A stretch of 6,291 nt of DNA from Candidatus Methylomirabilota bacterium. GTDB lineage: Bacteria; Methylomirabilota; Methylomirabilia; Methylomirabilales; Methylomirabilaceae. The notes beneath the pieces were generated by a model, which worked only from the letters and a program-made list of their open reading frames with translations, ran no database searches and was not told the DNA's origin. Each line of letters opens with the position of its first letter. Within the stretch, counting starts at the first letter, position 1. Positions 20-6,291 of the stretch are shown here, piece after piece. The stretch lies in assembly GCA_016200385.1 (NCBI GenBank), contig JACQEV010000055.1, positions 1 through 6,291 of the forward strand, given 5' to 3'. The position numbers were made by a program, and so were the translations under genes.

Positions 20-955
20 CTACCACCAGAGGTGACTGTACATGTTCTCGCCCAACGCTGGGAACTCTTTATGCCAAACGCCCAGGCTCACATACTTCCA
101 TCCACCATCGCAGAGGATCACGACGATGTTTCCCTTCTCCATCCGATGCGCCATCCGTACCGCGACGTGAACGACAGCCCCGGAGGATACGCCTGCGAAG
201 ATCCCTTCCTTGGTTGTCAGATCCCTGGTCGCGGCAAAGGCGCACCGGGAGTCGACCATGATCTTGCCGTCCAACAAGCGTGTGTCCAAGATCGGCGGGA
301 TGAAGCCCTCCTCGAGGCTGCGCAGGCCCTGGACCAAGTCACCCGGATGAGGCTCGACGGCAATGACTTTGGTCTTGGGATTGACTTCCTTCAGCCGGCG
401 GCCGACACCCATCAGTGTCCCGCCGGTGCCAAGGCCTGCCACGAAGACATCGACGTCCGGCAGGTCGTTCAAGATCTCCACGGCCGTGGTCTCATAGTGG
501 GCCAGAGGGTTGGCCGGATTGCCGTACTGGAAGGGCATATAGAGCGACGTGTCTTCCGCCACAAGCTTCTGAGCCAGCTCGATGGCGCCGTTGCTCCCTT
601 TTGTCCCATCAGAATAGATCATCTCGGCGCCAAAGATCTCCAGGAGTTGGCGGCGCTCCGGTGTGGCATTCTCCGGAATCACCACCTTGACCTTATACCC
701 CTTCCTCCGCCCGATCATGGCCAGCGCGATGCCGGTGTTGCCGCTCGTCGGCTCCAGAATCGCCTTGTCCTTCGTAAGCTCGCCGCTCCGCTCGGCCTGC
801 TCAATCATGTATTTTGCGATCCGGTCCTTGAGGCTGCCGGTGGGGTTGTGTCCCTCCATCTTGGCGAAGATCCGGACCCCCTTCTTTGGACTGACCCGTG
901 GAAGCTCCACTAATGGCGTATTACCGATAGCCTCAAGAAGATCCGCTGTTCTCAT
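20..955 (-). CDS. cysM: CysM-type cysteine synthase, probably O-phosphoserine and sulfur-carrier dependent
   Basis: PLP-dependent fold-type II cysteine synthase of 311 aa, full length for the family, cytoplasmic. Visible motifs: the PLP lysine K43 in NPTGSLKDR, the substrate loop PTSGNTG (69-75), the phosphate-binding loop GLGTGGT (174-180) and the sheet motif EGIFAGVSSGA (250-260). Several features match Mycobacterium tuberculosis CysM rather than CysK: PENATPERRQLLE (94-106), QYGNPAN (143-149), G-L-R-S-L-E-E-G-F with R212 at the place of the arginine that selects O-phosphoserine, D-G-G-W-K-Y (283-288), and a C-terminal tail ending H-L-W-W, like the L-W-A tail that closes the mycobacterial active site. 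The inferred reaction is O-phosphoserine plus a thiocarboxylated carrier giving cysteine. The ATG at 955-953 has GGGG six bases upstream; an ATG four bases earlier is out of frame. The stop is TAG. It is separated from the upstream tusA by 123 nt. Confidence 0.93.
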   Translation of the reverse strand: MRTADLLEAIGNTPLVELPRVSPKKGVRIFAKMEGHNPTGSLKDRIAKYMIEQAERSGELTKDKAILEPTSGNTGIALAMIGRRKGYKVKVVIPENATPERRQLLEIFGAEMIYSDGTKGSNGAIELAQKLVAEDTSLYMPFQYGNPANPLAHYETTAVEILNDLPDVDVFVAGLGTGGTLMGVGRRLKEVNPKTKVIAVEPHPGDLVQGLRSLEEGFIPPILDTRLLDGKIMVDSRCAFAATRDLTTKEGIFAGVSSGAVVHVAVRMAHRMEKGNIVVILCDGGWKYVSLGVWHKEFPALGENMYSHLWW

Positions 956-2379: not shown

Positions 2380-2607
2380 CTACGCCTTTTCCAGCACGAT
2401 TTCCCATTGGCTTCCGCCCATCTCCCGAACCGCCAGAACGGCGTGCCCTTCTTCCTTCGCCCACCTGGGGATGTCTTCGGCTGACTTCGCGTAATCGACG
2501 GTCACGACCAATTGATCGCCCTTTTGCAGCTTCCCCATCTCTTTCCTGGTCATGATCAACGGATAGGGGCAAATCTCTCCGGTCACATCGAGCGAACGTT
2601 GCGCCAT
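2380..2607 (-). CDS. tusA: TusA-family sulfur carrier, canonical CPYP
   Basis: Cytoplasmic persulfide carrier of 75 aa. It begins M-A-Q-R-S-L-D-V-T-G-E-I and carries the canonical CPxP motif as C13-P-Y-P16, followed by the helix LIMTRKEMGKLQKGD, the strand QLVVTVDYAKSAEDIP, the helix RWAKEEGH and a final strand SQWEIVLEKA, which is the complete TusA fold. The start at 2607 has GGAGG six bases upstream and leaves 14 nt to the rhodanese stop. A longer in-frame reading to 2751 would overlap the rhodanese gene by more than 120 nt and add a non-family N-terminus, so it is rejected. It lies directly after the rhodanese and the YedE transporter; YeeE-TusA pairs are known to take up thiosulfate (TsuA/TsuB in E. 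coli), so it probably receives the imported sulfur. Confidence 0.92.
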   Translation of the reverse strand: MAQRSLDVTGEICPYPLIMTRKEMGKLQKGDQLVVTVDYAKSAEDIPRWAKEEGHAVLAVREMGGSQWEIVLEKA

Positions 2608-2621
2608 CTCTTCCCTCCACC

Positions 2622-3533
2622 TTATTCCTCGATCGGCAGAGTCTCGGAATTCCCCCATTCGGACCATGAGGCGTCGTAGTTTTTGAGCTTCTGATATCCC
2701 AGGAGCCGCAGCACAAAGTAGTCGTGGGCGGCCCTGGCGCCGGTCTGGCAATAGGTGATCGTCTCCCGGTCCGGAGTCACCCCGGCGGCCTCGAAGATCT
2801 TTCGCAACTCCTCCGCGCTCTTGAACGTGTGATCATCCCGCCGCATGGTGTTGAGATAGTCCACATTGACGGCCCCTGGAATCCGACCGCCTCGCAGAGC
2901 CCAAAGATCTTCTCCGGTGTACTCTTTAGCCGATCGGGCATCCAGGAGGCATACCTTCGGGTTGCCAAGCCGACTTCGCACATCCTCGGCGGTGGCCAAG
3001 AGTTCTGGACGTGGCCGGGCGACGAAGGCGGCCTTAAGCGGTGTCGGCACCTCGGTAGAGACGGGGCGACCCTCTCGCGTCCACTTCGGGAAGCCCCCGT
3101 TCAACACCTGTACTTTGTCATGGCCGAAAAACTCCAGGACGAAGAAGAGGCGCGCCGCGCCGAACGGGGTCTTTGGGCCATCATAGGCAACCACCCTGGT
3201 GCCCTCGCCGATGCCCAGTCCGCCGAAGAGCTCCTCTGCCCGAGCCTTGGGGATCGGAAGGCCCTGCTGATTGGCCTTGAGATCGTCCAGGGCCTGCCAG
3301 GCCAGATGCACGGCGCCGGGGATGTGGCCACTGGCGTATTCTTCCGGCGTGCGAATGTCCACAACCCGCAACCCTGTCTCGGCCAAGTGGTTCGCCAGCG
3401 TCTCTGTCTCGATGAGAAGCTGCGGGTTGGCATATCCGTTGGTTGCGGTCGCCAGCGCCTGCGGCACCGCCGAAACCCAGGAAAGAACGATGGCTGTCAG
3501 AGAACCAATCCAGATACTACGCGCGTTGCGCAC
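2622..3533 (-). CDS. Exported two-domain rhodanese (thiosulfate/3-mercaptopyruvate sulfurtransferase type)
   Basis: Protein of 303 aa with an N-terminal Sec signal peptide (V-R-N-A-R-S-I-W-I then a hydrophobic stretch, likely cut after PQALA near residue 29), so probably periplasmic. Two rhodanese domains follow. The N-terminal one (L-R-V-V-D-I-R-T-P-E-E-Y, G-H-I-P-G-A) has Asp in the active-site position (V-V-A-Y-D-G), as usual for the inactive domain. The C-terminal one has C-L-L-D-A-R-S, G-R-I-P-G-A and the active loop Y-C-Q-T-G-A-R-A-A-H with catalytic C262. The CQTGAR loop is of the SseA/YnjE kind; the donor could be thiosulfate, mercaptopyruvate or a persulfide. The start is GTG at 3533, chosen because GGGGAG lies six bases upstream and the signal peptide begins there; a longer in-frame ATG at 3602 lies inside yedE. 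It overlaps the end of yedE by 17 nt. Confidence 0.92.
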   Translation of the reverse strand: MRNARSIWIGSLTAIVLSWVSAVPQALATATNGYANPQLLIETETLANHLAETGLRVVDIRTPEEYASGHIPGAVHLAWQALDDLKANQQGLPIPKARAEELFGGLGIGEGTRVVAYDGPKTPFGAARLFFVLEFFGHDKVQVLNGGFPKWTREGRPVSTEVPTPLKAAFVARPRPELLATAEDVRSRLGNPKVCLLDARSAKEYTGEDLWALRGGRIPGAVNVDYLNTMRRDDHTFKSAEELRKIFEAAGVTPDRETITYCQTGARAAHDYFVLRLLGYQKLKNYDASWSEWGNSETLPIEE

Positions 3534-4533
3534 TTCGGACTCCCCTTTCAAATGCCACACTCCCAAACAGGAGATAGGCGCCGGTCCAGACTCCCAAGAC
3601 AATGCTCAGTGTGGCCGTCAGGCTGCTTAGGCCAAAGAGTGGGATCCCGGTCAGGCCATGGCCGATGTTACATCCGCCGGCGATCCCGGCGCCCACGCCC
3701 ATGAGCAAGCCACCGCCGAGGGCCTGCAGGAGACGTTGCGCGCCGGGCGCGCGCCAGGCGAATTCTCCGTGCGACCGCGCCGCCAGGTAGGCGCCCGGGA
3801 TGATCCCCAACCACATGAAGCTGCCCCATGTGAGCGGATCCGTGTCGCCCGTGAACAGGAAGCCCGAGATCGACCGGATCCCCTCGGTGATCGAGAGGCC
3901 ATAGTCCCTCCCCGTCAGCGCGGAAATCGGCCAGGCGATGGTCGCGATCAGGCCGATCGTGACCCCACTCCTTGTCCAACTCCACCCTCTCTGATATCCG
4001 CCTGCCGGGCTTCTCAGGAGCCACCATCCGCCTGCCGCCAGAAAAAGGGCGACCAGGACCCATGGGTTCACGTGGAAGAGACGATCCAGGGTGGCCGGCT
4101 CCCCGTCCATCTCGACCACCCAGCTCCGGAGGGCAGTCTGGACCGGCTCAAGCACGCCGGCGCTCGTCATGGTGATGCCGAATGCAAATCCGAGCAACGC
4201 GATGATCGATCCCACCATCCCCTCACCGGACCGGTAAGTGCTGCCGCTCGCTCAGCCGCCAGAGAAGGCCATGCCCAGGCCGAAGACGAAGCCGCCCAGC
4301 AGGGTGGCCTCCCAGAAAAAGGGAGTAATGCCCAACTCGAACCAGCCCAACGCCGACATCGCCCTGACCCCGACCATCTGGATCAAGAGGGCCAGAAAGT
4401 AGGCTCGAAGCAGGGTAAGATCGCGCGCCACTAGAATATCGCGGAACGTGGAGTTCATGCAGAAGCGGCCGCGTTGAAGCGCGTATCCGAAGGCAACTCC
4501 AACGAGCAACCCCAGGGCAATCGTAAGTAGCAT
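3517..4533 (-). CDS. yedE: YeeE/YedE-family sulfur transporter, predicted selenoprotein with in-frame UGA (Sec94)
   Basis: Integral inner-membrane protein of 338 aa if the TGA at 4252-4254 is read as selenocysteine. About nine hydrophobic segments are visible (near 1-19, 38-59, 76-94, 107-127, 154-173, 188-206, 235-252, 272-292, 301-324). Family signatures: Q-R-G-R-F-C25-M-N-S-x-F-R-D, then G-G-U94-A-S-G-S-T-Y-R-S-G-E-G, then A-G-G-C288-N-I-G-H-G-L-T-G-I-P. Residue 94 is the family's conserved central cysteine; in the Spirochaeta thermophila YeeE thiosulfate transporter three such cysteines (C22, C91, C293 as I recall) are needed. The two pieces either side of the TGA are in the same frame and neither is a complete family member. 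The ATG at 4533 has GGGG seven bases upstream and follows moeB by 19 nt. Conventional gene calling would report two genes, 4252-4533 and 3517-4218. Alternatives are a nonsense mutation or a base error. Thiosulfate or another sulfur/selenium species is the likely substrate. Confidence 0.85.
3540..3545 (-). promoter_or_regulatory. Ribosome binding site deciding the GTG start of the rhodanese
   Basis: GGGGAG on the minus strand, six bases before the GTG at 3533. It lies within the last codons of yedE, so translation of the two genes is probably coupled. Confidence 0.7.
4222..4254 (-). promoter_or_regulatory. Candidate bacterial SECIS element after the yedE UGA
   Basis: In the mRNA, 13 nt after the UGA triplet comes CUUACC (4238-4233), loop GGUCC (4232-4228), and GGUGAG (4227-4222). 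The arms pair fully over 6 bp (one U-G). The apical loop opens with GG at nucleotides 23-24 counted from the U of UGA, followed by U. E. coli fdhF has its essential loop G and U at nucleotides 23-24, so distance and loop composition agree with the bacterial SECIS consensus bound by SelB. The lower stem is weak. The 3' arm (GGUGAG, then GGG) also resembles a Shine-Dalgarno just before the ATG at 4218, which may mislead gene callers or allow reinitiation. Confidence 0.7.
4252..4254 (-). other. In-frame UGA, predicted selenocysteine codon of yedE
   Basis: TGA codon 94 of the continuous yedE frame. It follows F-S-G-G and is followed by A-S-G-S-T-Y-R-S-G-E-G-M-V-G-S, so it replaces the conserved Cys of the YeeE/YedE GGC-x-x-G-T-x-Y-R motif. 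Downstream sense codons keep family similarity to the stop TAG at 3517-3519, with no other in-frame stop. Cys-to-UGA substitution at a functional cysteine with conservation on both sides is the classical sign of Sec. Confidence 0.8.
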
Positions 4534-5720: not shown

Positions 5721-6291
5721 TCAGAATGGGATCGTCAGATACCGCTCCCCTGTATCGGGGAGCACCGTGACCACAACCTTCCCGACTCCAAGCCGTTCAG
5801 CCACCACCGTCGAGGCGAAGACATTGGCCCCGGCCGAGATCCCCACCAGGAGACCCTCCTCTTTGGTCAAGCGGGAGGCCATCCGATAGGCGTCCTCGTC
5901 CTCGACCGCGATGATCTCGTCAAGGATTTCCACATTCAGGACTCCGGGGACGAAGCTGGCACCGATCCCCTGGATCCCATGAGGCCTAGCCCTCCCTCCC
6001 AGTAGGACAGGAGACTTTGCCGGCTCCACCGCGATCACCTGGACGCCCGGAACTTCCTTTTTTAATACCTCGCCTACTCCAGTGATGGTCCCGCCGGTAC
6101 CGACCCCAGCCACAAAGGCATCGATCTGCCCCTGGGTGGCCTTCAGAATCTCCCGAGCCGTGGTCTGGCGGTGGATTTCCGGGTTGGCCGGGTTCACAAA
6201 CTGCTGCGGCATGAAGTAACCAGGGTTCTTTGCCAGCAGCGATTCGGCAGCATACACGGCGCCGGTCATTCCCTCGATGGCTGGGGTCAGA
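5721..6291 (-). CDS. cysK: Cysteine synthase A (O-acetylserine sulfhydrylase), 3' part
   Basis: The C-terminal 189 residues of a PLP-dependent cysteine synthase; the 5' part lies beyond the right edge. The visible sequence opens with L-T-P-A-I-E-G-M, the CysK LTPxxxGM motif, so the frame continues past the ATG at 6269 to the edge. Other family marks: F-M-P-Q-Q-F-x-N-P-A-N-P-E-I-H, the PLP phosphate loop G-V-G-T-G-G-T-I-T-G, E-P-A-K-S-P-V-L, the H-G-I-Q-G-I-G-A-S-F-V-P loop typical of CysK, the G-I-S-A-G-A-N segment, and the C-terminal L-P-D-T-G-E-R-Y-L-T. It would make cysteine from O-acetylserine and sulfide, unlike the CysM at the other end of the cluster. It ends with TGA, showing TGA is a normal stop here. 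The PLP lysine and TSGNTG loop are outside the window. Confidence 0.95.
   Translation of the reverse strand, partial: LTPAIEGMTGAVYAAESLLAKNPGYFMPQQFVNPANPEIHRQTTAREILKATQGQIDAFVAGVGTGGTITGVGEVLKKEVPGVQVIAVEPAKSPVLLGGRARPHGIQGIGASFVPGVLNVEILDEIIAVEDEDAYRMASRLTKEEGLLVGISAGANVFASTVVAERLGVGKVVVTVLPDTGERYLTIPF

What the first reader, a model, noticed from the sequence alone, without database searches (positions are those of the whole stretch)
3517..4533. Selenocysteine-containing YeeE/YedE transporter: UGA at the conserved central cysteine
Two apparent genes are one frame interrupted by a single UGA. Reading through restores the family motif exactly (GG-U-ASGSTYRSGEG where relatives have GGC...GT.YR.GEG), and similarity continues to the proper end with the third conserved cysteine (C288). 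The replaced cysteine is one of the three that are functionally important in the thiosulfate transporter YeeE. I am not aware of a described Sec-containing member of this transporter family. A Sec in a membrane sulfur/selenium conduit would change substrate chemistry (selenolate relay, possibly selenium or thiosulfate transfer) and make transport depend on selenium supply.
Basis: partly seen in the sequence, partly recalled or inferred. Interest (0 to 1): 0.95.

Follow-up and report, generated by a model that had tools for sequence, protein, structure and literature searches.

The report
Selenocysteine in a sulfur transporter's pore
A bacterial gene for a membrane protein of the thiosulfate-transporter family carries the codon UGA exactly where relatives have a key pore cysteine, and this UGA is likely read as selenocysteine, which would place selenium in the route by which the cell takes up sulfur; selenium-containing members of this family had already been predicted in the literature.

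Summary
It is very likely a selenoprotein. The same genome has selA (two contig-end pieces), selB and a selD with its own in-frame TGA. The codon is TGA in 6 of 15 genomes of the genus and TGC/TGT in 9; 36 of 120 listed homologues are stumps that start just after it. A hairpin 3' of the TGA is intact in 10 of 11 TGA genes and 0 of 9 cysteine genes, though relatedness weakens this test. tRNA-Sec was not found in this 81%-complete genome; 13 of 15 of the genus have a hit. Added here: the gene sits in a conserved operon that suggests thiosulfate-to-cysteine assimilation, and TGA occurs at the other two relay cysteines elsewhere (first and third in 15, third alone in 6 of 30 Nitrospirota genes read; first alone in two other genomes). 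Transport and selenium chemistry are inferred.

The parts
3517..4533 (-). Sec-type YeeE/TsuA gene, 338 codons plus TAG stop; TGA at codon 94 read through
   Evidence: fold match to 6LEO/8K1R
4252..4254 (-). in-frame TGA, codon 94, counterpart of StYeeE Cys91
4222..4238 (-). SECIS-like stem-loop: 6-bp stem CUUACC/GGUGAG with loop GGUCC, 19 nt between UGA and loop
   Evidence: consensus fold of 10 TGA genes gives these 6 pairs; no covariation; RNAfold of the window gene alone prefers another pairing
4459..4461 (-). codon 25 (TGC), counterpart of StYeeE Cys22, cytoplasmic exit
3670..3672 (-). codon 288 (TGT), counterpart of StYeeE Cys293
2622..3533 (-). rhodanese (PF00581, two stretches); GTG start proposed here at 3533, overlapping the 3' end of the YeeE gene; N-terminus looks like a signal peptide by eye
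   Evidence: (scan of 2622-3602)
2380..2607 (-). TusA-family sulfur carrier (CPYP motif), second copy
   Evidence: PF01206, 82.6 bits
1347..2318 (-). YncE-like beta-propeller; N-terminus looks like a signal peptide by eye
   Evidence: PF21783
1079..1324 (-). TusA-family sulfur carrier (CPYT motif), first copy; ends at a TGA stop
   Evidence: PF01206, 79.6 bits; stop read
20..955 (-). PLP-dependent cysteine-synthase-like enzyme (CysK/CysM type)
   Evidence: PF00291
4553..5701 (-). ThiS/MoaD-ThiF fusion (sulfur-carrier activation)
   Evidence: PF02597, PF00899
5721..6291 (-). second PLP-dependent cysteine-synthase-like gene, cut by the contig end; ends at a TGA stop
   Evidence: PF00291; scan of 5721-6269; stop read

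Best explanation
Window 4533..3517 on the minus strand is a single gene for a YeeE/TsuA-family membrane protein whose codon 94 is UGA at the position of the central pore cysteine, and this UGA is likely decoded as selenocysteine by the SelA/SelB/SelD pathway. SHOWN by sequence: the UGA, its position, its recurrence in other genomes, the sel genes, and the gene order PLP enzyme - ThiS/ThiF - YeeE - rhodanese - TusA - propeller - TusA - PLP enzyme. INFERRED: thiosulfate (or its sulfane sulfur) enters at the Cys288 side, is passed by the central selenolate at position 94 to Cys25, and from there to the CPxP-type cysteine of a TusA partner, as proposed for StYeeE-StYeeD; the TusA proteins then feed the ThiS/ThiF carrier and the PLP enzymes for cysteine synthesis. 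INFERRED: Sec at the middle station is kept because a selenolate is ionised at neutral pH, exchanges sulfur faster and recovers from oxidation, while cysteine does the job in sister species, so it tunes the relay and is not a new activity.
For: TGA at this codon in 6 of 15 genomes of the genus and 5 of 5 fully read sister-family genes, cysteine in 9 of 15. A tree needs 4 Sec/Cys changes (least forced by well-supported branches: 2), with a Cys gene (G030) nested among Sec genes. Own genome: selB 383.5 bits (cut-off 242.25), selA in two contig-end pieces of 350.8 and 238.6 bits (cut-off 267.9), and selD with an in-frame TGA in GAGUACK, from recall the known Cys/Sec site of SelD. selB above cut-off in 15 of 15 genomes of the genus; tRNA-Sec hit above cut-off in 13 of 15, TCA anticodon confirmed in the two genus loci given to ARAGORN (L076, L077). 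Hairpin intact in 10 of 11 TGA genes, 0 of 9 Cys genes; random synonymous codons give it in 0.6-0.9%. 36 of 120 listed homologues start just after the codon, among them P0014 (97% identical over 69%, 22 member sequences). In the other TGA-bearing members that I read, the TGA falls on one of the same three cysteine positions, except G093, whose TGA lies near its C-terminus and is probably its stop. Gene order shared by TGA and Cys genomes. Model pLDDT 91.3; TM 0.89 to 6LEO.
Against: No tRNA-Sec found in the own assembly (the six weak hits are tRNA-Ser or tRNA-Leu), and in the stretch syntenic with G028 contig C369 runs on past the point where G028 has its tRNA-Sec, so a contig break there is not the explanation. 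One of the 13 genus hits (G031, 56.4 bits) scores like a second hit that G026, G033 and G034 have besides their main one, so 12 are clear. Folding energies do not separate Sec from Cys genes cleanly (window gene z -1.5 and -0.9; the Cys gene of G024 reaches -2.4), and RNAfold prefers another pairing for the window gene. The stem shows no covariation and was chosen from the Sec genes. Only 2 independent Sec/Cys contrasts on well-supported branches (4 on all), too few for significance. Several weaker TGA-bearing matches were not read. No protein, labelling, ribosome or transport data. Substrate is by homology; the protein scores below NCBIfam's TsuA equivalog cut-off (260.7 against 400).
Confidence: 0.87

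Rival explanations
1. UGA is a true stop. The locus is a split gene: the ribosome makes the N-terminal 93 residues and restarts at Met106 to make the rest, two halves forming the pore as PmpA and PmpB are proposed to do.
For: Gene callers start many homologues there, and half-size YeeE relatives exist (PMC11582611, passages). The TGA genes shown have Met or Leu at residue 106.
Against: The 11 codons in between are kept as protein within the genus although nothing would translate them; in the 11 TGA genes of the window's clade the internal break is always TGA and always at the cysteine, the only other stops being end stops in G013 and G008; 15 of 30 Nitrospirota genes read have two TGA at the two other conserved cysteines; a split would drop the cysteine whose C91A mutant is titled inactive.
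Confidence: 0.05
2. Nonsense mutation or assembly error in a cysteine gene.
For: One base separates TGA from TGC/TGT; the genome is a 411-contig draft; 9 of 15 genomes of the genus have Cys.
Against: The same TGA in 5 other genomes of the genus, which stay 83-84% identical over the whole length, and in sister families; 36 truncated homologues from several sources.
Confidence: 0.02
3. UGA is read as another amino acid by general readthrough or a changed code.
For: TGA is in frame and the gene is otherwise open.
Against: Two neighbours, TusA_1 (1079) and the PLP enzyme at 5721, end at TGA, and the best TusA_1 hits in the seven other genus regions have the same length, 80-82 aa; UGA here sits where relatives have cysteine, and in selD at its known Cys/Sec site by recall; selA, selB and selD are present.
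Confidence: 0.02
4. The protein contains Sec but moves selenium compounds, not thiosulfate, as suggested for YedE.
For: TIGR04112/YedE is linked to selenium genes (PMC5322559, passages).
Against: Scores 43.6 against a cut-off of 200 for TIGR04112 and 102.8 against 350 for NF033796; the Pfam matches of the seven neighbours are sulfur-carrier, rhodanese, ThiF, PLP-enzyme and propeller families, no sel gene; best fold and sequence match is the thiosulfate transporter.
Confidence: 0.06

Closest known systems
[quoted passage not shown] also listed in PMC9312934, 2022)
   Same: Same Pfam family and same motif: G-U-A-S-G here.
   Different: I saw only the table rows and a passage, not the example's sequence. 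NC10 members, the operon, Sec/Cys switching and Sec at the other two cysteines were not in the passages seen. The two papers credited for the entry do not name YeeE in their main text; their supplements were not readable here.
StYeeE/TsuA of Spirochaeta thermophila (6LEO, 6LEP, 8J4C, 8K1R)
   Same: Fold over nearly the whole length (TM 0.89, 37% identity), three aligned relay positions, TusA-family gene nearby.
   Different: Sec codon in place of Cys91; two separate TusA genes; ThiS-ThiF and cysteine-synthase-like genes beside it.
SoxT1A/SoxT1B of Hyphomicrobium (PMC11582611, passages)
   Same: YeeE-like proteins; soxT1A lies beside a rhodanese gene.
   Different: Serve sulfur oxidation and signalling; here the neighbours point to cysteine synthesis.
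YedE/FdhT selenium-linked membrane proteins (TIGR04112, NF033796)
   Same: Distant relatives in the same superfamily.
   Different: Far below both curated cut-offs; linked by neighbourhood to selenium genes in PMC5322559 (passages), not here.

Membership tests
YeeE/TsuA family (PF04143) | match to the family model over its length | tested here: met
   269.7 bits against 27, positions 1-310 of 310
YeeE/TsuA family (PF04143) | fold of the solved thiosulfate transporter | tested here: met
YeeE/TsuA family (PF04143) | three relay cysteine positions | tested here: met
   positions 25, 94, 288 align with Cys22, Cys91, Cys293; 25 and 288 are Cys codons, 94 is TGA
YeeE/TsuA family (PF04143) | TusA-type partner gene | tested here: met
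   two PF01206 genes in the window; a TusA-type gene in 9 of 9 regions read, two of them in 8 of 9. Physical partnership not tested
TsuA equivalog NF052577 | curated cut-off | tested here: not met
   260.7 bits against 400
Selenium YedE (TIGR04112, NF033796) | curated cut-offs | tested here: not met
   43.6 against 200 and 102.8 against 350
Bacterial selenoprotein | in-frame UGA aligned with a functional cysteine, with Cys orthologues | tested here: met
Bacterial selenoprotein | selA, selB, selD in the genome | tested here: met
   selA in two pieces on two contigs, one of them below the cut-off alone
Bacterial selenoprotein | tRNA-Sec (selC) in the genome | tested here: inconclusive
   not found in the 81%-complete own assembly; a hit above cut-off in 13 of 15 genomes of the genus, 12 of them clear
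Bacterial selenoprotein | SECIS hairpin just 3' of the UGA | tested here: inconclusive
   6-bp stem in 10 of 11 TGA genes and 0 of 9 Cys genes, but no covariation, overlapping energies and few independent contrasts; bSECISearch was not available
Bacterial selenoprotein | selenium in the protein | not testable with these tools
   needs mass spectrometry or 75Se labelling
Sec-YeeE of PMC13188914 | motif GUxSG in PF04143 | tested here: met
   GGUASG; motif from the table

The most novel reading that the evidence does not exclude
Selenium walks along the pore: in the YeeE family each of the three relay cysteines has been replaced by selenocysteine in some lineage, alone or two at once (Cys-Sec-Cys in NC10; Sec-Cys-Sec and Cys-Cys-Sec in Nitrospirota, with Dissulfurispira thermophila among them by its stored stump; Sec-Cys-Asp in an NC10 relative with many truncated metagenomic kin; Sec-Cys-Cys in a further genome), so these transporters form a natural set of selenolate/thiolate relays tuned station by station for moving sulfane sulfur across a membrane.
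Probability: 0.75. Interest if true: 0.78.

Novelty: new member of a known kind. Interest (0 to 1): 0.6.

Why it matters
If true, a thiosulfate importer uses selenium in its conduction path, so sulfur uptake in these NC10 bacteria would depend on selenium. Because sister species of one genus carry Cys or Sec at one codon of the same operon, and other lineages carry Sec at the neighbouring stations, nature offers matched pairs that make a long-standing question testable: what does Sec give that Cys does not? The literature entry for the family is a predicted one-motif row; the positional spread found here turns it into a family with at least five Sec/Cys patterns. It also bears on annotation: 167 of the homologues listed in three searches are stored as stumps that begin, or begin and end, at these codons.

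Tried and rejected
Considered and rejected: split gene, nonsense mutation or sequencing error, changed genetic code, selenium YedE (see rivals).

Literature: searches for YeeE, YedE, COG2391, TusA, Methylomirabilis or -ota, Nitrospirota or Dissulfurispira with selenocysteine or selenoprotein showed, in the listings and in the passages I opened, only the GUxSG entry; Sec at the other two cysteines was not seen. Several listed papers (for example PMC11097638) were not opened, supplements were not readable, and PMC12013261 is not held. Papers seen as passages only: PMC13188914 (plus part 2 of its reference list), PMC9312934, PMC11073785, PMC11582611, PMC5322559, PMC12170894; PMC2398784, PMC5029168 and PMC12013277 were searched for terms only.

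Rows dropped: in the tree two of 30 loci (L039, L041) were left out, and also L040; one search left out G033, whose protein equals that of G034; one search counts 118 of the 120 listed hits for each of the second and third protein searches, because two in each list had appeared before; only the first 120 of 334, 125 and 799 hits are listed; 30 loci were read, and at least 7 further matches there with one TGA were not, nor were weaker TGA matches (for example G007, G018, G073, G075, G076, G083, G084). In one search the rhodanese query was out of frame; one search repeats it in frame. In one search strands were wrong; one search replaces it.
Full report
What is there. The window (6291 bases, contig C188 of a 2.2-Mb draft, 411 contigs, 81% complete) carries eight genes on the minus strand. 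The gene in question runs from 4533 down to 3517 and has one in-frame TGA, codon 94, at 4254..4252. Read through, it is a full PF04143 Sulf_transp protein (269.7 bits). Its predicted structure has mean pLDDT 91.3 and pTM 0.89 and matches the thiosulfate transporter YeeE of Spirochaeta thermophila (6LEO, TM 0.89, rmsd 2.0). The sequence alignment puts C25, U94 and C288 on Cys22, Cys91 and Cys293. PDB entry 6LEP is titled 'inactive mutant - C91A', and PMC11582611 states that Cys91 and Cys293 are indispensable (passage). The three stand in a line perpendicular to the membrane, with Cys22 next to the active cysteine of the TusA-like partner YeeD (PMC11073785, passages).

Organism. Close homologues are named candidate division NC10 / Candidatus Methylomirabilota. 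Two TGA genomes of the same genus, G023 and G033, share contig lengths with records titled Candidatus Methylomirabilis (L102, L109), so the genus is inferred to be Methylomirabilis.

Is the TGA real and recurrent? All 15 genomes of the genus have the gene. The codon is TGA in 6 (G000, G022, G023, G028, G033, G034) and TGC/TGT in 9. All 5 fully read genes of sister families (G008, G012, G013, G016, G019) have TGA in GGUTTG.SYRSGEG, as do the partial G015 and the frame-broken G094:C216. A tree with the trait column masked needs 4 changes of state, at least 2 by well-supported branches; the Cys gene of G030 groups with the Sec gene of G022 at 95/81. TGA in all sister-family genes read makes Sec the likelier old state with repeated change to Cys, but I do not claim the direction. 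In the protein database 36 of 120 listed homologues lack the part before the TGA and start at the next start codons (17 at residue 107, 11 at 106, 4 at 111, 4 at 122), while 79 keep all three cysteines; for these I have no DNA. The stretch between TGA and the next start evolves as protein inside the genus (16 synonymous, 6 non-synonymous codon differences in 110 comparisons of 5 genes); with the sister families it is 84 and 110 in 495.

Is there machinery for selenocysteine? Own genome: selB 383.5 bits; selA 350.8 and 238.6 bits on two contig ends; selD 399.8 bits with its own in-frame TGA at GAGUACK, which is, from recall, the catalytic Cys/Sec of SelD. tRNA-Sec was not found: the six weak hits are Ser and Leu tRNAs. 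In the genus 13 of 15 have a hit above cut-off; 12 are clear (65-75 bits), while that of G031 (56.4 bits) resembles a second hit present in G026, G033 and G034. The two without (G000, G023) are about 80% complete, though three others of 80-83% (G024, G027, G029) have it. In synteny with G028 the own contig C369 continues past the place, so the gene is either in the missing part of the genome or lost. selB is above cut-off in 15 of 15 genomes of the genus, Sec and Cys alike, so the Cys state is not caused by loss of the pathway.

Is there a SECIS? A 6-bp stem, CUUACC/GGUGAG with loop GGUCN and 19 nt between UGA and loop, is complete in 10 of 11 TGA genes and 0 of 9 Cys genes (6 of 6 against 0 of 9 inside the genus; Fisher p 1.2e-4 and 2.0e-4 without regard to relatedness), and random synonymous codons give it in 0.6-0.9%. 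RNAalifold finds exactly these six pairs in ten TGA genes, without covariation. Against this: energies overlap, the window gene's own best fold differs, the stem was picked from the Sec genes, and on the tree there are only 2 to 4 independent contrasts. I call the SECIS plausible, not shown.

Operon. In nine regions read (five TGA and two Cys genomes of the genus, two TGA genomes of sister families) the order is PLP enzyme, ThiS/MoaD-ThiF, YeeE, TusA, TusA, PLP enzyme, except that only one TusA gene was hit in G008. The rhodanese lies after YeeE in the window and in G023, G028, G016, G008 and G094; no hit at E 1e-4 in the stretches of G022, G033, G034, G025 and G030. The window rhodanese overlaps the YeeE end by 17 bases if its GTG at 3533 is used. 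It and the propeller look exported by eye; no signal-peptide tool was run. From this anatomy I infer a thiosulfate-to-cysteine route: uptake by YeeE, hand-over to TusA, activation on ThiS/ThiF, use by the PLP enzymes. That a TusA docks to YeeE is by analogy with YeeD.

What is known. PMC13188914 (2026; [quoted passage not shown] PMC9312934 (2022; passages) lists the family. The credited papers PMC2398784 and PMC5029168 do not contain the name YeeE in their main text (supplements not readable here). So the window gene is a new member of a known, predicted kind.

Beyond the window. Following TGA codons through the family gave patterns that were not in the passages or listings I saw. (a) G006, an NC10 relative: TGA at the first cysteine (ERGRFUMLSAF), Cys in the middle, Asp at the third; of 118 homologues counted, 72 begin exactly at the residue after that codon. 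(b) G354, a single-contig genome whose YeeE is 100% identical to the one stored for Dissulfurispira thermophila over the stored part: TGA at the first and third cysteines, Cys in the middle. In its phylum, which the names and the taxonomy make Nitrospirota, 155 of 295 genomes had a match; of 30 genes read, 15 are Sec-Cys-Sec, 6 Cys-Cys-Sec and 9 Cys-Cys-Cys; of 118 stored homologues counted, 59 begin exactly after the first and end exactly before the second TGA position. (c) G211, outside the window's phylum: TGA at the first cysteine only. (d) Other paralogues in the window's phylum have TGA at the middle cysteine in the motifs GGYUPG (G028, G036, G038) and KGUATS (G058, G088). tRNA-Sec with TCA anticodon is in G006, G211 and G354. 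A clean hairpin signal exists for the third station in Nitrospirota, not for the first.

Mechanism and confidence. That UGA 94 is Sec: 0.87. That the protein imports thiosulfate or its sulfane sulfur for cysteine synthesis: about 0.7, by fold, motif and neighbours. That Sec speeds or protects the middle transfer step: about 0.5, chemistry from general knowledge, untested.

Verdict.

Noticed in passing
L138:8216-9181 (+) (G006:C170): NC10-relative YeeE with TGA at the first relay cysteine, Cys at the second and Asp at the third; 72 of 118 counted homologues start exactly after that codon.
   Followed up: partly
L156-L170 (G354, G448, G502 and 12 more); L180-L185: Nitrospirota YeeE genes with two TGA at the first and third relay cysteines (15 of 30 read) or one at the third (6 of 30).
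   Followed up: partly
L136 (G211:C18:6709-7620, -): YeeE with TGA at the first relay cysteine only, in a genome outside the window's phylum that has tRNA-Sec.
   Followed up: partly
L070, L071, L072, L073, L074: Half-size or divergent YeeE paralogues with TGA in GGYUPG or KGUATS; the own genome has the Cys form GGYCPG on C359.
   Followed up: partly
L186 (G000:C210:9680-10606, -): selD of the own genome has an in-frame TGA at GAGUACK.
   Followed up: yes
L004 and L005 (G000:C305, C411): selA is broken over two contig ends, and tRNA-Sec was not found in the assembly.
   Followed up: partly
window 2622-3533 and 1347-2318: Rhodanese and beta-propeller with signal-peptide-like starts by eye; the rhodanese follows YeeE in six of eleven loci compared and was not hit in five.
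   Followed up: partly
L135:3787-4394 (-): Two small genes upstream of the Sec-Cys-Sec gene of G354 resemble DsrE-type proteins by eye; Pfam gives no match.
   Followed up: no
   Followed up: no
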